Shown in pieces: positions 1-10,184 of a stretch of DNA of 64,000 bases. Location of the stretch: contig JAIQFX010000004.1 of NCBI GenBank assembly GCA_020073005.1, positions 1 through 64,000 of the forward strand. Direction: 5' to 3'. The notes under the pieces were generated by a model, which saw only the letters and a list, made by a program, of their open reading frames with translations, was not told where the DNA came from and did no database searches. Each line of letters starts with the position of its first letter. The first letter of the stretch is position 1. Made by a program: the position numbers and the translations under genes. This DNA is from Terriglobia bacterium (GTDB taxonomy: Bacteria > Acidobacteriota > Vicinamibacteria > Vicinamibacterales > CAVVIG01).

Positions 1-307
1 CGGCGAGGCGGACCTGGACGGCATCGCCGACGACCCTGGCCTCGTGCTTCGTCACGCCGACGACGGGATCCTGGACGAGGACGCCGGTCCGCACGTCGTA
101 CTGCCAGCCGTGCCACGGGCACGTGACGATGCAGCTCTTGACGGGGCCCTCGCACAGCGGACCGCCGCGATGGAGGCAGAGATTGTCGACGGCGTGGAAC
201 TCGCCGTCGACGTTGAAGAGGCCGACCCACCGATCGTCGACAATCACCTGACGCGCCCGGCCGGGCGCGATATCGGTGACGCGGACCACGGTCACGAATT
301 CACGCAC
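1..307 (-). CDS. Rieske [2Fe-2S] ferredoxin-like protein (3' end beyond window)
   Basis: Small soluble Rieske protein, probably an electron carrier or the ferredoxin component of an oxygenase. Both cluster-binding motifs are visible: CLHRGG and, about 18 residues later, CPWHGW, which supply the two Cys and two His ligands. About 102 codons are present and the frame runs off the left edge without a stop, so only the last few residues are missing for a family that is usually 100-110 aa. GTG at 307 is the chosen start; a second GTG at 295 is possible. There is no signal peptide. It lies 45 bp downstream of the rhodanese gene on the same strand, so the two may be co-transcribed. The gap holds A/T-rich tandem AAAAGT-like repeats. 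The partner enzyme is not in the window. Confidence 0.85.
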   Translation of the reverse strand, partial: MREFVTVVRVTDIAPGRARQVIVDDRWVGLFNVDGEFHAVDNLCLHRGGPLCEGPVKSCIVTCPWHGWQYDVRTGVLVQDPVVGVTKHEARVVGDAVQVRLA

Positions 308-352: not shown

Positions 353-823
353 TCACTTTTCAGTTTTGACGATCGGATTCTTCCCGCTCACCCATTCGTT
401 CCAGCCGCCGAGCAGGGCCTTGACGGTCTTCACGCCGCGCTGTTCGAGGATGAGCGCCGCACGGGCGCTCGTGGCTTCGTCCAGTCACGCGCAGTACGTG
501 ACGACGGTCTTCTGCGTTTTCTGGAGAGACTCCGCGAACTTCTCGTACTCCATCGGCCACGCAATCAGGCCCTCGAGCGGCAGCAGCTGCGCGCCGGGAA
601 TGTGCCCCTTCGCGAACGCGTCAGGCTTGCGCGTGTCGACGATGATGACGGTCTTCGCCGCGATCAACTTCTTGAATTGCGCCTGCGTGATGCGAGCCGC
701 GCCGTCCATGCCGCGCTCCTCGCCCTTTTGAGCCAGGACCGGCGACGCGGACGTCGCCGCAAGTGCCGCCAGCGCCGTGAAAACCGCCGCGCGAAGCCCC
801 CGGCGCCAAAGTGAAGTGCGCAT
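353..823 (-). CDS. Exported rhodanese-domain protein, probable selenoprotein (UGA at 485-487 read as Sec113)
   Basis: Single-domain rhodanese (sulfurtransferase or persulfide carrier) with an N-terminal signal peptide (hydrophobic stretch about residues 10-30, then a likely ASPVLAQ cleavage region), so periplasmic. The family core is clear: VDTRKPDAFAKGHIPGA at about 62-78, then the active-site strand VVTYCA. The codon after YCA is TGA (485-487). The same frame then continues with LDEATSARAALILEQRGVK and LLGGWNEWV, the standard C-terminal half of the domain, to a TGA stop at 353-355. Related rhodaneses, as I recall them, have a YCAC-type loop here, so the UGA replaces the second cysteine of a C-x-C pair and would give Cys111-Ala-Sec113. 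A hairpin fitting a bacterial SECIS lies 14 nt further on. Full length 156 aa; termination at the UGA would leave a 112-aa protein without the second half of the fold. A nonsense mutation is the alternative. Confidence 0.8.
452..470 (-). promoter_or_regulatory. Candidate bacterial SECIS hairpin in the rhodanese mRNA
   Basis: On the minus strand GAGCGCC pairs perfectly with GGCGCTC (7 bp) around the 5-nt loop CGTGC. The loop starts 21 nt after the UGA, has G in its second position and a U in the middle. That fits the bacterial SECIS pattern as I know it: small apical loop, G among the first two loop bases, roughly 16-37 nt from the UGA. It also codes for protein (TSARAAL), as bacterial SECIS elements do. 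Confidence 0.7.
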
Positions 824-840
824 CCATCTAATATAGCCCC
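824..840. promoter_or_regulatory. Shared bidirectional -10 region giving two leaderless genes
   Basis: Only 17 bp separate two divergent start codons. On the plus strand TAATAT (829-834) is followed by six bases and then ATG at 841. On the minus strand TATATT (835-830) is followed by six bases and then ATG at 823. With the usual 7-nt spacing from -10 to +1, each transcript would begin on the A of its own ATG. No Shine-Dalgarno sequence can exist in this space, and no good -35 is seen on either side. Confidence 0.6.
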
Positions 841-2448
841 ATGCCCGGGTATTCCATCCGCGCGCGTCCGGCGCGCGGCGCCGCCGCGTCCCCGCCCGCC
901 GGAAGCGATCCGGACGTCCTCGCGGCGTTTCTCGAGGATGCCGCGCACTTCCCCGGCGGCCACGCCGCGGGCGTCGTCTTCCCGACGACGGAGGCCGGCG
1001 TCGCTCGCGCGGTGCGCGAGGCGTCCACGGTCCTGCCGATCGGCGCGCAGTCCTCGCTCACGGGCGGCGCGACGCCGATGGGCGAGATTGTGCTCAGCAC
1101 GCGACAGCTGAATCGCCGCATCGACGTCGCCGACGATTCGGTCCGCGTCGGGGCCGGCGTGACGATCGCCGAGCTCGACAGCGCGCTCGCGGACGCGGGC
1201 AAGTGCTATCCGCCGGCGCCGACGTTCACCGGCGCCTTCGTCGGCGGGACGGTCGCGACCAACGCCGCGGGCGCCGCGACGTTCAAGTACGGCACGACGC
1301 GCGACTGGGTCCGCGCGCTGACGATCGTGCTGGCCAACGGCGACGTCCTCGACGTCGAGCGCGGCCGCGTGTGCGCGAGCGACGACGGCGCGTTCGAGAT
1401 CGCGCTGTCCGATCGCGTCGCGCGCGTCGACGTACCGCGGTACGTCATGCCGCGCGTCGCGAAGCTGTCCGCCGGCTACTTCGCCGCGCCGGGCATGGAC
1501 CTGATCGATCTGTTCATCGGATCGGAAGGGACGCTCGGCGTCGTGACCGAGGTCACGCTGCGCGTGCTGCCGTCGCGGCCCGCGCTCTGCCTCGCGTTCG
1601 TGCCGTTCGCCGATCGTCACGCGGCGCTCACGTTCGTCGCGGAGCTTCGACGTGACGCACAGGACACGTGGCGGACCCGCGATCCGCAGGGGCTCGACAT
1701 CTCGGCGATCGAGCACATGGACGCGCGCTGTCTCGCGCTGCTGCGCGAGGACGGCGTCGATCGCCAGCACGGCGTGACGATTCCCGATGGAACGGCGATC
1801 GCGCTGCTCGTCACGCTCGAGCTGCCGGCTGACATGACCCAAGCGCGCGCGTTCGACGAGATCGGCCGCGCACGCGAGACCGGCGCGCCCGACACACGGC
1901 TGACTCGATTCTGCCGCGCGCTCGATCGAGCCGGCGTGCTCGATGCGGTCGAGATCGCCGTGCCCGGCGATCGCGCGCGAGCCGAGCAGCTGCTCGCGAT
2001 CCGCGAAGCCGTGCCGGCCGCGGTCAACGCGCGCGTCGGCCGGGCGAAGCACGGCGTCGACGCGCAGATCGCGAAGACCGCCGCCGACATGATCGTGCCG
2101 TTCGAGCGGCTCGACGAGCTGTTGAAGATCTACGACGACGAGTTCCGGCGCCGCGGCCTCGACGCCGCCGTCTGGGGGCACATCTCGGACGGCAACCTGC
2201 ACCCGAACGTCATCCCGCGATCGATCGCCGACGTCGAGTCCGGCAAGGACGCGATCCTCGCGTTCGGCCGTGAAGTGCGCCGTCTCGGCGGATCGCCGCT
2301 GGCCGAGCACGGCGTGGGGCGGAATGGGGTCAAGCAGCAGCTGCTGCGGGATCTGTACGGGCGCGACGGGATCGACCAGATGAGATCTGTGAAACGCGCG
2401 CTCGATCCCGAGTGTAAACTCGCGCCTGGCGTGATTTTCCCGGCTTGA
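841..2448 (+). CDS. FAD-linked oxidase of the D-lactate dehydrogenase / GlcD family
   Basis: A flavoprotein oxidising a 2-hydroxy acid such as D-lactate or glycolate; the exact substrate is not decidable here. The N-terminal FAD-binding PCMH-type domain (about 40-230) shows LPIGAQSSLTGGATPMGE and the segment from TFTGAFVGGTVATNAAGA on into KYGTTRDW, which contact the flavin. The C-terminal cap ends with HISDGNLHPNVIP and SPLAEHGVGRNG, typical of this family, and closes with LDPECKLAPGVIFP. Length 535 aa is normal for a single-chain enzyme. The start is the only ATG near the family N-terminus, preceded by a -10-like TAATAT and no ribosome-binding site, so the message is probably leaderless. 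It is divergent from the rhodanese. Confidence 0.88.
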   Translation: MPGYSIRARPARGAAASPPAGSDPDVLAAFLEDAAHFPGGHAAGVVFPTTEAGVARAVREASTVLPIGAQSSLTGGATPMGEIVLSTRQLNRRIDVADDSVRVGAGVTIAELDSALADAGKCYPPAPTFTGAFVGGTVATNAAGAATFKYGTTRDWVRALTIVLANGDVLDVERGRVCASDDGAFEIALSDRVARVDVPRYVMPRVAKLSAGYFAAPGMDLIDLFIGSEGTLGVVTEVTLRVLPSRPALCLAFVPFADRHAALTFVAELRRDAQDTWRTRDPQGLDISAIEHMDARCLALLREDGVDRQHGVTIPDGTAIALLVTLELPADMTQARAFDEIGRARETGAPDTRLTRFCRALDRAGVLDAVEIAVPGDRARAEQLLAIREAVPAAVNARVGRAKHGVDAQIAKTAADMIVPFERLDELLKIYDDEFRRRGLDAAVWGHISDGNLHPNVIPRSIADVESGKDAILAFGREVRRLGGSPLAEHGVGRNGVKQQLLRDLYGRDGIDQMRSVKRALDPECKLAPGVIFPA

Positions 2449-2538: not shown

Positions 2539-4992
2539 ATGATGGAGCTCGGGAAATTCCAGAAGCTGAAGACGTACGACCTGGTCGTTCTCGACCCGGC
2601 CCCGAAAAAAGTCCCCGTCAGCAGACTCGAATCGACAAGAGCGGCCATCAACAAAGCTCTCAAGAAAGGCGGAGATCTCACGGTGGACCGCCTTGCCGGA
2701 CGGTACGTGGTCTGCCGGGTCGAGAAACCTGTATCGCAGACGCTGCCCGTCGACGACGAGGTCTACACGATCACGGTCACGTTGCGGTCGATCGACAAGC
2801 TCGATCCCGCCAGCGTCATTCAATTCGACCTCGACGGCAAACCCGATCAGTTTCGGCTGACGCGCGAGTTCCTTGCCGCGGACGGGCCGAACCCTCTGAT
2901 GTCGCTGGAGGCCGATGAGGACAATCTCGACGAACTGGCCATCACCAACCCACTGACGCTCTTGAAGCTGTGCAGTTGGGAATGGCTCCCGGCGCATGGT
3001 GCCCCAGGAAAGCTGCCCGTGCGAGATCGGCTGGACCTGGGCACGCAGGAGGGCATCACCAAGGAGGCCATGCGCGCCATGGTGGAATATCGCGCCTGGA
3101 TCACGCAGCGGGTGTTCGAGCAGGTCGCGGAGTCCGCCGTCGAGTACGCCAGATGCAAGCGCACGCAGTACGCCCTCGAACAGGGCCTCAGTCCGGAACA
3201 GGCCGCGACGTTCGCGGCCCAGGCGCTGCCGTGCGGCGGCGACATCCCGGGCAGCACGGAGCTGTCGTCCGACATCGACATCAACACGTTCGGCGACGGC
3301 ACCGAATTCGCCGTGCAGAACTTCAACGCCCTCTTCCGCCACATGTTCGACGGCAACGAGCCCGGCATCGTGTTCGACGTGAACATGTACGGGAAGGACT
3401 TTCTGCCGAAGTTCACGCCCAAGGAGGCCTGGACGCGAAAGCGTCTGGCGGGAGACGCCGGCGTCGAGCCCGTCCGCCAGATCCGTCCGGTCTTCGACCA
3501 CAACTTCTCCACTTCGGAGATGGAGAAACGGGACGCGCTGCGCCAGTTGATGCACGGCTTCGTCAAGCTGCGGCGCTACATGGTCGATTTCGTCGACGAC
3601 GGCCTGGGCGGCCCGCCGCGCCACATGGGAGACCGGAGCGCGGAAGAAAGCTGGAATGCCTTCTGCGACTACTTCAGGAACAACCCTGCGCGCGGACAGG
3701 ACCATCCGGTCCTCACGCTGCTGACCGAAGCCAGGAATCAACACCTGATCTGGAATGACCTGGTGCACAGGCTCGCCTCGGCGCGCAACACGGCGAAAGA
3801 GATCCACGTCGGCAATGCAGGGGCCGTTACCGGCGACGCGGCACTTGGGTACCTGCGCTCGGAACGAGACATTCTGGGCGTTGACCGGAAAAGGCTGATG
3901 GCCACGCAGAACAGCCTGTACGAACATGCGTTGCGGACGCACGTGGAGAGCGCCCGCCTCCGACTCAGTCTCCTGCAATTCAAGAAGAGCAATCCAATTT
4001 TGAACCGGGCCGGCCTCGACGACGCGATCGATGAAGCCTTCCTGCAGCTGCGCTCGGAGATTTCGAGCTCGTTGTACTTTGCCAACGAGGCGTACGTGTC
4101 CGCGGGTGGCGTGATGCAGGTCGTCGGCGGCAAACAGCAGAAATCACGCAAGGTGGGAACCGACTACGGGCAGAAACAAAGCTTTCACAACATCGCCTAT
4201 ACGGCGCACGAGCTGATGCAGTCCGCGGTCGACCAACTCGCGGACATTCACAAGGAAGCGCACCGCCATTTCCACGCCGTCCACGGCGACCTCGGCGGAA
4301 CGCTCCTGTCGACCGGCAAGTACATTCACCGGCTGTTCAACGCGCTGAAGCATCTCTACACGCTGATGAGCAGAGTGCGGATCGAGCATGCGGGCGCTCC
4401 TGGCGTCCGGCTGCCGTTCACGCAGACGTTTCCGGACAGAGTGGTTCCCAATCCCGGCGTGTGGAAGAGGATGCGACGTTTTGGCTACGGGCTCGAGGGC
4501 CTGAAAAAGGCGCCGGCCGACTGGCCGTCAGATGTCGCGCGCCAGGCGTTCGTGGCCAGGTGGCAGGACCGCGAAAAAGCGAAGGGAACGGGCCTGCTGT
4601 TCCTGCTGGCCGTCAAGTTCGGTCTGACTCAGGACCAGTTGCGGACCTGTCTCGACGCACACCGTGGCACGCCAGCCCGCACCCGCAAGCAGGACCTGGT
4701 CATTTGGCTGATCAACGAGCTGGGGATCAGCGTGACGATTGTCAGGGGGGACGACGCCGGCAGCCCGCTCATGCTTCGCGCCGCGGACGATGACCATATC
4801 GAAGAAAACTACTATCGGTTCTTTGGAACGCTCGTTCAGTGCGCGATTGAGGATTACTACGAGTACTGCGCGATCGGTGAAGACGACCTGAAGAAAAGCC
4901 TGAGCAGGAAACGGCCGCCGTACTACTGGGAGGGGCCGGCGGACGCCGAGGCCGCGTACGAAGACGATTGGTCCGAGCTCGAGGACGAATGA
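2539..4992 (+). CDS. Large protein with a nucleotidyltransferase-like motif; first gene of the giant-protein operon
   Basis: An 817-aa soluble protein of no family I can name. Residues 236-252 read PGSTELSSDIDINTFGD and residues 277-283 read IVFDVNM. Together they match the nucleotidyltransferase-fold signature: hG[GS], then a D-x-D pair (Asp245, Asp247), then a third acidic residue on a later strand (Asp280). The triad is intact, so catalysis is plausible, but donor and acceptor are unknown. The rest is mostly helical by eye; around 680-740 a short region ending RKQDLVIWLINELGI may be a helix-extended-helix module (weak). The C-terminus is very acidic. There is no signal peptide or membrane segment. 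ATG at 2539 has GGAG about 8 nt upstream. The stop overlaps the next start (ATGATG), so translation is coupled. By eye the codon use is a little less G+C-biased than its neighbours. Confidence 0.75.
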   Translation: MMELGKFQKLKTYDLVVLDPAPKKVPVSRLESTRAAINKALKKGGDLTVDRLAGRYVVCRVEKPVSQTLPVDDEVYTITVTLRSIDKLDPASVIQFDLDGKPDQFRLTREFLAADGPNPLMSLEADEDNLDELAITNPLTLLKLCSWEWLPAHGAPGKLPVRDRLDLGTQEGITKEAMRAMVEYRAWITQRVFEQVAESAVEYARCKRTQYALEQGLSPEQAATFAAQALPCGGDIPGSTELSSDIDINTFGDGTEFAVQNFNALFRHMFDGNEPGIVFDVNMYGKDFLPKFTPKEAWTRKRLAGDAGVEPVRQIRPVFDHNFSTSEMEKRDALRQLMHGFVKLRRYMVDFVDDGLGGPPRHMGDRSAEESWNAFCDYFRNNPARGQDHPVLTLLTEARNQHLIWNDLVHRLASARNTAKEIHVGNAGAVTGDAALGYLRSERDILGVDRKRLMATQNSLYEHALRTHVESARLRLSLLQFKKSNPILNRAGLDDAIDEAFLQLRSEISSSLYFANEAYVSAGGVMQVVGGKQQKSRKVGTDYGQKQSFHNIAYTAHELMQSAVDQLADIHKEAHRHFHAVHGDLGGTLLSTGKYIHRLFNALKHLYTLMSRVRIEHAGAPGVRLPFTQTFPDRVVPNPGVWKRMRRFGYGLEGLKKAPADWPSDVARQAFVARWQDREKAKGTGLLFLLAVKFGLTQDQLRTCLDAHRGTPARTRKQDLVIWLINELGISVTIVRGDDAGSPLMLRAADDDHIEENYYRFFGTLVQCAIEDYYEYCAIGEDDLKKSLSRKRPPYYWEGPADAEAAYEDDWSELEDE

Positions 4993-7900
4993 TGCCTGGC
5001 GGCAATCCCCGCCTCGGGGCGACCGATCTCGATCGAAACGTACTCGAGATCGGACTGCTCACCGGCCTCCTCAGCGATCGCGACGAAACCGGCGCGCGCC
5101 TCACCAACGAAGTCGCGCTCAACCTGGCGTGGTTCAGCGGGCCGATCGAGGAGCTGGGAAAGATCCCGTCGGAGCGGACCGATCAGCTGTTCGCGCTGCT
5201 CGAGGAAGTCTTTCCTGAAGGCGGAGGCTTCCATCTCGCCAGGAGAAAAGGCCAGGCCGACGTGCTCGGCCTCGAGCTCCGATCCGCGGCAGCCGGCGGA
5301 GTCGTCCAGCCGTCGCTCTTCCTGCCGCTGTTCGACCTCACGCACCAGACGCTGATCGTCGGCCGCAGCGGATATCCGCTCGAGCTGCGTGTCGCGGTGT
5401 CCGCGGGCGACGCGCCGCTGATCGAAACGCGCGCGCTCCGGATAGGCGAGCTCAGCCTCTCGGAGACGATCGCGTTCGACAAGGCGCCGGATCTCCCGGA
5501 CATCGTCCTGTCCGACGTCGCGTGGCATCCGTTCGGGAAGGACGATCGCGCGTCCGAGATCACGCTTCGCGAGCTCGTCGATCGCGCGTCCGGCGATCCC
5601 GCGCACTCGCTCGCGTTCCTCGTCGATCAGCTCGCGGCCGCGTTGAGCGAGCCCGGGACCGACAACGCGTCCGCCATCACCGCGCTCAGAAACATCGTCC
5701 GCGTGCTGAGCGTCGGCGACTTCGGCCTGTTCAGAGGCGTGCCGTTCTTCGCGGAGCTTGCGGGAAACGCCGCGCTCTTGAAGGAATGGCTTGCGGCGCT
5801 TCAGGCCCTCCTCGACGGCACCGACGCCGCGGCCGACGCTCCGGCAATCCAGGGATCCGGAACTGACGCCGATCCGTTTCTCCTGCGCGTGGCCGCCATC
5901 GGCGTCACCGGCAGCGTCTCCGTGACGTTTGCCCGGCAGGACACCGGCCGCCTGCTCGCCGGCGTCGCGCTCGAGTCGGATGTGTACACGCTCGCCAGCT
6001 CGATCGGCGTCCGCATGCGCGGCGTCGTCGACATGTCGAGCGCGGATCTCACCTTCACGCTGTGTCACCCAAACGCGAGCGGCACCGGGCCGCGTCCGCT
6101 GTTCCAGTACATGCCGATGCACTGGATCGAGGGCGCGCCGCAGAGCCGATTCTCGATCGGAGCGGCTCAGTTCGGTATTCGCGTGCGCCCGCAGGAAGGC
6201 GAGCCGGCAAAGTGGCTTCAGGCGTCGTTGGCGCTGGAGAACGTGGAACGGCCCGGCGATGCCGGCGCGGGCACTTACGATTACGACCTGCTGACACTCA
6301 CGCGGCGGCCGAGCGCCGGCGGAGCGACAGCAGACGCGAAGGACGCCGTCGCGAAACTGCTCGCGGATCTTGCGAGCGCGCTGCCGGCCGTGTATCAGGC
6401 GAGTCAACCGGCGGAAGACACTCCGATGCCCGAAGTCATCGGCGCCACCTTCGATCGCTCCGCGTACCGACACCTGATCGACGCGACGAGAGGCCTTACC
6501 GGCGCGCAGACGGAAGGGATCGACGGCGTCGTTCAGTCGATCACGGGGCTCGCCGCATGGCTCGCCGCCGGCGATCTGCAGAATCGATCCTTCCAGTGGC
6601 TGAAGGCCCGGGTGCAGGACGGTGGGATCTTCGGCGCCACCGGCAGGCTGCTGGCGCTGTTCAATTCCGCGTTCACGGCCGAGGAGACACGGCTCCTCTT
6701 CCAGCCGACGATTGGATTGTCGGTTTCGGTCGGAAAGAGCGGAGACTCGGGGCTCGAGTTCCGCGTCGAGCCGCGTGTCGACGCCGGAGCCGTCGGACTC
6801 TCGCTGGGCGCGGGCGTCGTTGTCGATGTCTCCGGCGGATCGCTCCCGAGTTTCCGGTTCAACGCCAGCACCGGGCTCACGGACGAAGCGATTCGTCCGC
6901 TGCTGAACGCCGGCGTCGACCTCCGCCCGCAGCTCGATCTCGCGCTTGCGCTTGCGCTGAACGCGTCTCCAGCGGCGTCCGTGACGTTCTACCCGATTGG
7001 CGATCGCGCGTTCGCGGCGGCGCTCCTGCCGCAACCGCGACTCACGTATCAGTCGAGCGGAGTCGACGCCGTCTCATGGCTGCTCCGCCTCGCGCCGCGC
7101 GTGCTGCTGCCGCTCGTCGAGATGGGCGTGCTCAATCGCGCGGACGTGAAGGAGGCGCTCGAGCATCCTGTCCTCGATTTCTCGCTGGCGAAGCTGCTGA
7201 CGCGCCTGGAGCTGCTCCGGCAGCCGGACGGCGTGTACCGCCTCGGAGACTGGTCGAAGTTCGCCGACCTGAGCGCCGCGAAATTCCTCGGCGCGATCGT
7301 GGACTCGCTGCAAGCCGACGAGCAGCAGGCGCAAACCGACGGCGTGCACTTCGTGGCGCTGAAGAACGCCGCGGGTACTGCGACTGACTATGGGATCCGT
7401 ATCCGGCTGACGAATCTGCCGCTCGGCGGCAAAGACAGCGGCCGCACGCTGCAGGCCGGCCAATGGCTCAGCGAGGAAACCGACGACCGCAACTGGCTGA
7501 TCGCGAGCGGCGGGCCGGCAGGAAAACAGCCGGGCGCGGAATTGATCCTGTGTCGCAAGCAAGACGGATCGCTCAGTTTCGACGCGGCCCGGATCGATCT
7601 CACCAGCGTCGGTCTTGATTTCGAGGGCAAGGCGCTTCCCAGCGGACGGAAACCGCTGTTCGACGTCAACGGCTACACGCTGCGAAAGCTGAAGTCACGG
7701 CTCTATGTGTCCGTCAGCGGCGGCGGCGCGCAATTCGGCGGCGCGATCGAGCTGAACGACATGTCGATGCCGCTCGGGCCGAAGGCGGGCGGCGAATCAG
7801 GCAGCGAAAATCCCGTCGCCGCCAACCTCCTCGCCTCGGGCCCGGACGAAGGCGGCCGGAACGAGCCCGTCAATCCCGCGTTCTCCGCTCTCGTCGCGTA

Positions 7901-10184
7901 CCGCGATGGGTTCTACGGCAAAGTGTTCGTCTCCAACGGCACGCCGTCGGCCGACGGCAAGGTCTGGCTGCCGATTGGCCGATCGTTCGGCCCGCTGCGC
8001 TGCCGGCAGATCGGTCTTGGTTTCAAGGACGGCGCGACGCTCGAGGTCGGCTACGACGGAAGCGTGTCGCTCGCCGCGCTCGCGATCGATCTCGAGCGTC
8101 TGACCATCGGCATTCCGCTGAGGGATCCCGGACACTTCGACGAGTACGAGCTGGGGCTCGGCGGGCTCAACGTTTCCGTCGCGACGAGCGCCATTCAGGT
8201 CAGCGGCGGTCTCTCGAGAATCGACGTCGAAGGCGGCGCGCCGCGGTACGACGGGATGGCGCTGATCAAGGCGCAGGACCTGACGATCACCGGCTTCGGA
8301 TCGTACGCGATGGCCGACGGCGCGCCGTCGCTGTTCGTCTTTGCGGTCCTGCACAAAGATCTCGGCGGCCCGGCGTTCTTCCACGTCACCGGCGTGGCGG
8401 CGGGATTCGGATTCAACCGCGCGCTGCGGCTGCCGCCGGTCGAAGAAGTTCAGGCGTTCCCGCTGGTGCGCGCGGCGCTCGACGAGCACTACCTCCAGAG
8501 CACGCCCGACGCGCTCTCGACAGCGTTGTCCGTGCTGCGCGACTACATTCCGCCGTCGCGCGGCGACTGCTGGCTCGCGATCGGCGTGCGCTTCAGCTCG
8601 TTCGAGATGATCCAGTCGTTCGCGCTGCTGTCGGTCTCGTTCGGCCACGAGACGGAGATCGGCCTGCTCGGCATGTCGACGATGAGCGTGCCAAAGGGCG
8701 CGGAGCCGGGCAAGGCGGTGGCGTACGCGGAGCTGGCGTTGAGAGCCGTCATCAGACCCTCGGAAGGATTGATCGCGGTCGAGGGGCGGCTCACCGACAA
8801 GTCGTACATCTTTTCAAGCGACTGCCGGCTGACCGGAGGATTCGCGTTCTTCAGCTGGTTCTCCGGCCCGCACGCGGGCGACTTCGTCGTCACGATCGGC
8901 GGCTATCACCCGCGATTCATCGCGCCCTCGCACTATCCCACCGTCCCGCGCCTCGGGATCAACTGGCGGGTCAACGGCGATCTGAGCATCACGGGAGAGA
9001 TGTACTACGCGCTCACGCCGTCGTGCCTGATGGCGGGCGGACGGCTCTGCGCGGTCTATCAGTCGGGCCCCATCCAGGCGTGGTTCACGGCGTACGCGGA
9101 CTTCCTCCTGAACTGGCAGCCGTTCTACTACCAGGTCGAGATCGGGATCCTGATCGGCGTCGCCTGCAGCGTGAGGATCAACCTTCTCTTCTGCAGCTTC
9201 ACGCTCTCGATCCGGGTCGAGATCGGCGTCGACCTCCGCCTCTGGGGCCCGCCGTTCGCGGGCGAGATCTACGTCAACCTCTCGGTGATCTCGTTCACCA
9301 TCCGTTTCGGCGCGGGCCGATCGACCCCGAAGCCGCTCGCACCCGGCGAGTTCATCGGCGCGTGTCTGCCGCCGCGCGCCGGCGGCGGCCTGCTTCGCGC
9401 CGGATCGGACGACGCGTCAGCGGCCGACGTCATTTCTATCCGCATCGCGGGGGGACTCATCCGCGAACAGCACATCGATGATGGCGGCGTCACTCGCATC
9501 GTTCGCATGGTGAACGCGCACGAACTGGCGTTGACCGCGCAGTCGATCGTTCCTTCCACGAGCTTCGCGGGATTGAAGCCGGATCGCATCGTCGACACGA
9601 CGCGCTTCGGCATCAAGCCGATGGGCCAGACGAGCCTCACGTCGACGCTGACCGTGTCGCTGTTCAAGGACGGCAAGGAGGTGACGCCGACGCGCCAGTC
9701 GGGCGAGCCTCGCCTTCGCACGTTGGCGGTGACCTCGGGCGTTCCGGAAGCGCTGTGGGGAAAGAGCGGCGCCGCCGGCACGGTCGCGCTGCCTGGCGCG
9801 CCCGAGGCGAAGACGATTCCGGCGACGGTGGGCGTTCGCATCGTCTGCGCGCCGCCGGTTCCCGCGCACGCGCTTGCGCCGATCCCGCTCGAGAAGTTGA
9901 AGTACGACGATCTGCCGTCGAAGCCGGTCTCCTGGAGACGACTGATGGAGCCGCGCGCGATCGACGCGCACGGCAGCCGGACGATCGCGAACACGATCTG
10001 GGGCAACGCCGAGGTCGATGCGAGGCGTCGCGCCATTCTCGACGTCGTGGCGCGCGTGTCGCCGTTCGAGCTCAATCAACCTCGCCTCGAACATCTCAGC
10101 GCGTCGTCCGACTACTTTCAGGCCGACCCTGCGTTCGCCCTCGTCGAGTCGTACGGAACGCCGCAGGAGAGCGCGCGCGCATGA
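4989..10184 (+). CDS. Giant DUF6603-like protein
   Basis: A 1731-aa protein. Residues about 1030-1450 resemble the uncharacterised DUF6603 region as I recall it: GDFVVTIGGYHPRF, PSHYPTVPRLGINWRV, YYALTPSCLMAGGRL, AWFTAYADFLLNWQPF and LRLWGPPFAGEIYVNL. This segment alternates hydrophobic and polar residues, as in long beta structure, rather than forming membrane helices. The first 1000 residues are also beta-rich with many Gly/Ser turns and no catalytic motif I recognise. There is no signal peptide. The start is ATG 4989, overlapping the upstream stop, with GAGG a few bases before it; an in-frame ATG 8 codons upstream lies inside the previous gene. The stop overlaps the next start (ATGA). Function unknown. 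Confidence 0.8.
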   Translation: MMPGGNPRLGATDLDRNVLEIGLLTGLLSDRDETGARLTNEVALNLAWFSGPIEELGKIPSERTDQLFALLEEVFPEGGGFHLARRKGQADVLGLELRSAAAGGVVQPSLFLPLFDLTHQTLIVGRSGYPLELRVAVSAGDAPLIETRALRIGELSLSETIAFDKAPDLPDIVLSDVAWHPFGKDDRASEITLRELVDRASGDPAHSLAFLVDQLAAALSEPGTDNASAITALRNIVRVLSVGDFGLFRGVPFFAELAGNAALLKEWLAALQALLDGTDAAADAPAIQGSGTDADPFLLRVAAIGVTGSVSVTFARQDTGRLLAGVALESDVYTLASSIGVRMRGVVDMSSADLTFTLCHPNASGTGPRPLFQYMPMHWIEGAPQSRFSIGAAQFGIRVRPQEGEPAKWLQASLALENVERPGDAGAGTYDYDLLTLTRRPSAGGATADAKDAVAKLLADLASALPAVYQASQPAEDTPMPEVIGATFDRSAYRHLIDATRGLTGAQTEGIDGVVQSITGLAAWLAAGDLQNRSFQWLKARVQDGGIFGATGRLLALFNSAFTAEETRLLFQPTIGLSVSVGKSGDSGLEFRVEPRVDAGAVGLSLGAGVVVDVSGGSLPSFRFNASTGLTDEAIRPLLNAGVDLRPQLDLALALALNASPAASVTFYPIGDRAFAAALLPQPRLTYQSSGVDAVSWLLRLAPRVLLPLVEMGVLNRADVKEALEHPVLDFSLAKLLTRLELLRQPDGVYRLGDWSKFADLSAAKFLGAIVDSLQADEQQAQTDGVHFVALKNAAGTATDYGIRIRLTNLPLGGKDSGRTLQAGQWLSEETDDRNWLIASGGPAGKQPGAELILCRKQDGSLSFDAARIDLTSVGLDFEGKALPSGRKPLFDVNGYTLRKLKSRLYVSVSGGGAQFGGAIELNDMSMPLGPKAGGESGSENPVAANLLASGPDEGGRNEPVNPAFSALVAYRDGFYGKVFVSNGTPSADGKVWLPIGRSFGPLRCRQIGLGFKDGATLEVGYDGSVSLAALAIDLERLTIGIPLRDPGHFDEYELGLGGLNVSVATSAIQVSGGLSRIDVEGGAPRYDGMALIKAQDLTITGFGSYAMADGAPSLFVFAVLHKDLGGPAFFHVTGVAAGFGFNRALRLPPVEEVQAFPLVRAALDEHYLQSTPDALSTALSVLRDYIPPSRGDCWLAIGVRFSSFEMIQSFALLSVSFGHETEIGLLGMSTMSVPKGAEPGKAVAYAELALRAVIRPSEGLIAVEGRLTDKSYIFSSDCRLTGGFAFFSWFSGPHAGDFVVTIGGYHPRFIAPSHYPTVPRLGINWRVNGDLSITGEMYYALTPSCLMAGGRLCAVYQSGPIQAWFTAYADFLLNWQPFYYQVEIGILIGVACSVRINLLFCSFTLSIRVEIGVDLRLWGPPFAGEIYVNLSVISFTIRFGAGRSTPKPLAPGEFIGACLPPRAGGGLLRAGSDDASAADVISIRIAGGLIREQHIDDGGVTRIVRMVNAHELALTAQSIVPSTSFAGLKPDRIVDTTRFGIKPMGQTSLTSTLTVSLFKDGKEVTPTRQSGEPRLRTLAVTSGVPEALWGKSGAAGTVALPGAPEAKTIPATVGVRIVCAPPVPAHALAPIPLEKLKYDDLPSKPVSWRRLMEPRAIDAHGSRTIANTIWGNAEVDARRRAILDVVARVSPFELNQPRLEHLSASSDYFQADPAFALVESYGTPQESARA

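What the first reader, a model, noticed from the sequence alone, without database searches (positions are those of the whole stretch)
353..823. Rhodanese with an in-frame UGA at a Cys position and a SECIS-like hairpin: probable selenoprotein
Seen: one TGA interrupts an otherwise complete exported rhodanese frame at residue 113, directly after YCA; the family C-terminal half follows in the same frame with no other change; a perfect 7-bp hairpin with loop CGUGC begins 14 nt after the UGA (452-470). Known: some rhodaneses have a YCAC-type loop here, and bacterial SECIS elements lie just 3' of the UGA with a G early in a small loop. Inferred: UGA encodes Sec, giving a Cys-Ala-Sec redox pair beside the catalytic cysteine, an arrangement that may be undescribed for this family.
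Basis: partly seen in the sequence, partly recalled or inferred. Interest (0 to 1): 0.9.

Follow-up and report, generated by a model that had tools for sequence, protein, structure and literature searches.

The report
Selenocysteine rhodanese of the CxU kind
The apparent stop codon in this exported rhodanese gene of an Acidobacteria-type genome almost certainly codes for selenocysteine; the protein kind (rhodanese with a Cys-x-Sec pair) is already catalogued, so this is a well-supported new branch of a known family rather than a new kind of protein.

Summary
On the minus strand, window 356-823 encodes a complete 156-residue rhodanese interrupted only by a UGA (485-487) at residue 113, in the motif YCA-U. 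The reading as selenocysteine is strongly supported. The genome holds SelA, SelB, SelD (itself with an in-frame TGA) and tRNA-Sec. Fourteen homologues in the same order carry a TGA at the same codon. Codons 3' of the TGA are under purifying selection. The hairpin is a conserved bacterial SECIS: in 37 TGA homologues the four inner pairs form in 37/37, loop position 2 is G in 37/37, and one pair changes C-G to U-A. Cys homologues lack it. The claim that the Cys-x-Sec arrangement may be undescribed is not supported: 'rhodanese-like form 3, CxU' is listed in reviews, and NCBIfam NF041203 is 'rhodanese_LYCAU, rhodanese-related (seleno)protein'. The window protein scores 73 bits against that model's cut-off of 115, so it is a diverged branch with the same motif. 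Apparently new: its spread in the phylum, linkage to a divergent GlcD-type FAD oxidase gene, and relatives fused to DedA or Na/H-exchanger domains. The biochemical function is unproven.

The parts
356..823 (-). Rhodanese selenoprotein ORF, 156 residues with Sec113; terminal stop TGA at 353-355
   Evidence: TGA at the homologous codon in 14 relatives of the order
485..487 (-). In-frame TGA read as selenocysteine (residue 113, motif Y-C111-A-U113)
   Evidence: TGA in 15/15 members at the codon where Cys homologues have TGT/TGC
452..470 (-). Bacterial SECIS apical stem-loop GAGCGCC CGUGC GGCGCUC, 14 nt after the UGA
   Evidence: inner four pairs 37/37, loop position 2 G in 37/37, position 3 U or G; codons 6, 7, 9, 10 after the TGA are identical at DNA level in 15 members of the order
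491..493 (-). Cys111 codon (TGC), at the catalytic-Cys position of the rhodanese loop
   Evidence: invariant in alignment A1; strand E106-110 then loop then helix 117-128 in the model
731..823 (-). Putative signal peptide (MRTSLWRRGLRAAVFTALAALAATSASPVLA)
   Evidence: sequence inspection only; low model confidence there
824..840 (.). 17-bp interval between two head-to-head start codons; it holds TATATT shortly before the rhodanese ATG
   Evidence: TATATT or TATAGT at this place in all seven members of the window's family compared
841..2448 (+). Divergent GlcD-type FAD-linked oxidase gene, conserved neighbour
2..307 (-). Rieske-type ferredoxin, same strand, downstream of the rhodanese (open at the contig edge)
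   Evidence: also found beside the homologue in L020, not in the other flanks searched

Best explanation
The gene encodes a probably exported single-domain rhodanese in which UGA 485-487 is translated as selenocysteine. The mRNA hairpin at 452-470 is the SECIS that recruits SelB with Sec-tRNA(Sec). Shown by computation: the reading frame, the conserved UGA and SECIS, the machinery genes and purifying selection. Inferred: the product carries Cys111-Ala-Sec113 in the rhodanese active-site loop, which is two residues longer than in ordinary CxxGxRS rhodaneses. Sec113 and Cys111 would form a reversible selenenylsulfide, so that the enzyme handles a persulfide or disulfide substrate by a redox or sulfur-transfer cycle. 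Which of the two residues attacks first, and the substrate, are not known. The confidence given is for selenocysteine insertion; for the selenenylsulfide mechanism it is about 0.5.
For: SelA 453 bits; SelB with its winged-helix domain in a 645-residue ORF; tRNA-Sec 60.4 bits, above the gathering score, and called by ARAGORN with anticodon TCA; SelD 349 bits, itself with one in-frame TGA in ACAGUASK. Fourteen relatives in the order have a TGA at the same codon. SECIS conserved with G at loop position 2 in 37/37 and a paired C-G to U-A change; a model of it finds only this site strongly in the genome, E 1.6e-14 against 0.16 for the next, though the window's own sequence is in the model. The Cys homologues have TGT/TGC at that codon and no such hairpin. 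dN/dS within the genus beyond the SECIS is 0.07-0.08. Reading through gives a confident rhodanese fold (pLDDT about 93-98 in the domain).
Against: No protein or selenium data. One TGA-bearing relative, G011 (81% complete, 920 contigs), shows only a weak SelA-like match, probably missing sequence. The hairpin is not unusual in folding energy alone. The redox mechanism rests on motif analogy only.
Confidence: 0.96

Rival explanations
1. The TGA is a real stop and the gene is a pseudogene or yields a truncated 112-residue protein.
For: Standard code gives a 112-residue ORF.
Against: Same TGA in 14 relatives of the order with no other disablement in the complete ones; purifying selection after the TGA; synonymous positions of the hairpin frozen. 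The fragment L034 alone also has a TAG, near the very end of its frame, where it may simply be the terminal stop.
Confidence: 0.01
2. UGA is read as another residue (Trp or Cys) by a recoded or suppressor tRNA.
For: The frame stays open through the UGA.
Against: Complete Sec machinery and a SECIS exist; homologues carry Cys, not Trp, there; TGA is the terminal stop of this same gene.
Confidence: 0.01
3. Sec is inserted, but the protein works as a classical sulfurtransferase through Cys111, and Sec113 only protects or resolves it rather than forming the main redox pair.
For: Cys111 occupies the catalytic-Cys position after strand 106-110; some homologues keep Cys-x-Cys.
Against: Sec is kept widely in the family although changes between Sec and Cys occur (at least 8 on a tree of 47 rows), which suggests a catalytic advantage of Sec; not decisive.
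Confidence: 0.35

Closest known systems
NF041203 rhodanese_LYCAU, 'rhodanese-related (seleno)protein' (listed in PMC13188914 as rhodanese-like form 3, CxU)
   Same: Single rhodanese domain, Cys-x-Sec in the active-site loop; best NCBIfam match of the window protein and of nearly all relatives scanned.
   Different: Window protein scores 73 bits against a curated cut-off of 115; the other relatives scanned score 43-100; only one of 297 genomes of the phylum has a member over the cut-off.
NF045694 TsoB, rhodanese/DsbD fusion selenoprotein
   Same: Contains a rhodanese domain with Sec (PMC13188914); 36-bit match.
   Different: Fused to DsbD-like part, two Sec with UxxxxU, much longer; cut-off 805 bits not met.
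BH2092 of Bacillus halodurans (PDB 3nhv) and other single-domain rhodaneses
   Same: Rhodanese fold; Foldseek E 2.7e-7; loop of the same length in the profile alignment, YCWGPAC.
   Different: No Sec and no Cys-x-Cys.

Membership tests
Rhodanese domain (PF00581) | Profile match above gathering score | tested here: met
   64.8 bits against 22.2
Rhodanese domain (PF00581) | Cys at start of the active-site loop after the strand | tested here: met
   Cys111 invariant, after strand 106-110
Bacterial selenoprotein gene | In-frame UGA aligned with Cys in homologues | tested here: met
Bacterial selenoprotein gene | SECIS stem-loop shortly 3' of UGA with conserved G then U/G in a small apical loop | tested here: met
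Bacterial selenoprotein gene | SelA, SelB, SelD and tRNA-Sec in the genome | tested here: met
Bacterial selenoprotein gene | Selenium in the purified protein | not testable with these tools
   needs 75Se labelling or mass spectrometry
NF041203 rhodanese_LYCAU | Cys-x-Sec/Cys motif in the rhodanese loop | tested here: met
   YCAU
NF041203 rhodanese_LYCAU | Score above the equivalog cut-off of 115 bits | tested here: not met
   73 bits: same kind, not a strict member of this equivalog

The most novel reading that the evidence does not exclude
Acidobacteria have expanded the CxU rhodanese into a modular, phylum-wide set of selenoproteins: free, probably exported forms that work with a divergently transcribed GlcD-type FAD oxidase (the window's form), and membrane forms fused to DedA (VTT) or Na/H-exchanger domains, so that selenocysteine takes part in envelope sulfur or redox chemistry in many of these bacteria.
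Probability: 0.45. Interest if true: 0.5.

Novelty: new member of a known kind. Interest (0 to 1): 0.33.

Why it matters
Standard annotation would cut this protein at residue 112 and miss its active-site partner. The data show that Sec-containing CxU rhodaneses are common in the phylum of this genome, reach beyond the curated model, and have a recurrent genomic partner and membrane fusions that make their function testable.

Tried and rejected
Folding energy of the hairpin against shuffles gave no signal. Rfam gave no match to any SECIS family. A covariance model of the SECIS found no second convincing site in the genome; its next hit, C18:34187, lies in a frame with several stops and is taken as chance. 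The model did not find the TGA of SelD either, so it is specific to this family and is no test for other selenoproteins. The rhodanese-like paralogue in the same genome (C41:90876-91196) has VVVYDSDPNE in place of the motif and no TGA, so it is no Cys replacement of this protein. The idea that Sec forms track SelA presence and Cys forms its absence was not borne out: two genomes with the Cys form (G040, G050) also have SelA. A full-text search for the motif LYCAU gave only unrelated words, and a 2025 paper on selenoprotein neighbourhoods is not held. A first pass of the homologue extraction chose the wrong strand for several loci and was redone.

Full report
Observation. The minus strand of window 353-823 reads as a 156-residue rhodanese with one internal TGA (485-487, residue 113) and a terminal TGA (353-355). 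Pfam Rhodanese covers residues 46-145 at 64.8 bits. The hairpin GAGCGCC-CGUGC-GGCGCUC sits at 452-470, 14 nt after the UGA. Folding energy alone does not distinguish it from shuffles, so conservation was the test.

Machinery. The window's genome (5.86 Mb, 100% complete, 4.6% contamination) contains SelA (453 bits), SelB (winged-helix domain over cut-off and a 645-residue ORF with the GTPase start VVVGTAGHIDHGKS), tRNA-Sec (60.4 bits, the only copy over the gathering score; ARAGORN tRNA-SeC, TCA) and SelD (349 bits). SelD itself has an in-frame TGA in ACAGUASK, independent evidence that the genome decodes UGA as Sec. A relative of the same genus appears to be an Acidobacteria groundwater MAG (JACPZW010000027.1, L053, 85% identity), so the organism is taken to be an acidobacterium. 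SelA matches occur in 51 of 60 relatives searched, some of them weak and possibly paralogues.

Relatives. In 60 relatives the protein search found 14 strong homologues outside the window's genome with an in-frame TGA. Read in register, all 15 including the window have TGA at the same codon after YCA or YCS. The fragment L034 also has a TAG near its end. Cys replaces Sec in L029, L030 and L036. Within the genus dN/dS is 0.07-0.08 in the stretch beyond the SECIS, similar to or lower than upstream of the TGA, so the part after the TGA is translated.

SECIS. In the 15 order-level members codons 6, 7, 9 and 10 after the TGA (AGC GCC ... GCG GCG) are identical at DNA level, while other conserved residues nearby vary at synonymous sites. 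Over 37 TGA homologues, made up of those 15, 21 from a phylum-wide search with NF041203 and the DedA fusion L039, the four inner pairs form in all, loop position 2 is G in all, position 3 is U (27) or G (10), and the pair at columns 21-33 changes from C-G to U-A in two. Covariation is modest because the core is nearly invariant; 2 of 500 shuffles reached the observed covariation score. Cys homologues show no such element. On a 47-row tree at least 8 Sec/Cys changes are needed; that tree has many weak branches.

Structure. AlphaFold2 with the 17-row alignment gave a confident rhodanese fold (mean pLDDT 85, about 93-98 in the domain), with solved rhodaneses as nearest folds. Cys111 follows strand 106-110. 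In profile alignments the loop that carries Sec113 has two more residues than rhodaneses such as 3tp9 and the same length as BH2092. The distance between the sulfur and selenium positions was not measured.

Neighbourhood. A GlcD-type FAD oxidase gene lies beside the rhodanese and is transcribed away from it in L020-L026 and, as a partial match, L027. It also neighbours the Cys form L036. It was not found in the longer flanks of L028, L033 and L035. In the window the two starts are 17 bp apart, with TATATT shortly before the rhodanese ATG; this is kept in the seven family members compared, which suggests a leaderless mRNA or shared promoter (inference). A Rieske protein follows in the window and in L020 only.

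Known or new. Reviews list a CxU rhodanese among prokaryotic selenoproteins (PMC9312934; PMC13188914), and NCBIfam has NF041203 rhodanese_LYCAU. The window protein's best match is that model, at 73 bits against a cut-off of 115. It is therefore a diverged branch of a known kind, not a new arrangement. What I did not find described in the papers I could search is its spread in this phylum, the GlcD linkage and the membrane fusions; those searches cover open-licence papers only.

Noticed in passing
L039:907-1833 (+), L085:802-1848 (+), L092:892-1881 (+), L076:1394-2419 (-): CxU rhodanese selenoproteins fused behind a DedA/VTT membrane domain, with in-frame TGA and SECIS; no paper holding DedA, rhodanese and selenoprotein together was found.
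   Followed up: partly
L073:142-1842 (+): CxU rhodanese with in-frame TGA and SECIS fused behind a Na/H-exchanger membrane domain.
   Followed up: partly
L054:1024-1446 (+): Rhodanese of a Deltaproteobacteria MAG with in-frame TGA in YCWSKTU, a different Sec position.
   Followed up: no
window 824-840: Head-to-head starts only 17 bp apart, with a conserved TATATT/TATAGT shortly before the rhodanese ATG in the family: possible leaderless mRNA or shared divergent promoter.
   Followed up: partly
L049 (G000:C133:33644-34573): SelD of this genome is itself a probable selenoprotein, TGA in ACAGUASK.
   Followed up: partly
G022:C128:151-459, C262:56688-57002, C197:13327-13635, C222:77964-78317: One genome of the same family has several further rhodanese paralogues, each with one in-frame TGA.
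   Followed up: no
window 2539-4992 (+): 817-residue ORF without Pfam or NCBIfam match, overlapping the start of a 1738-residue ORF at 4968-10184.
   Followed up: no
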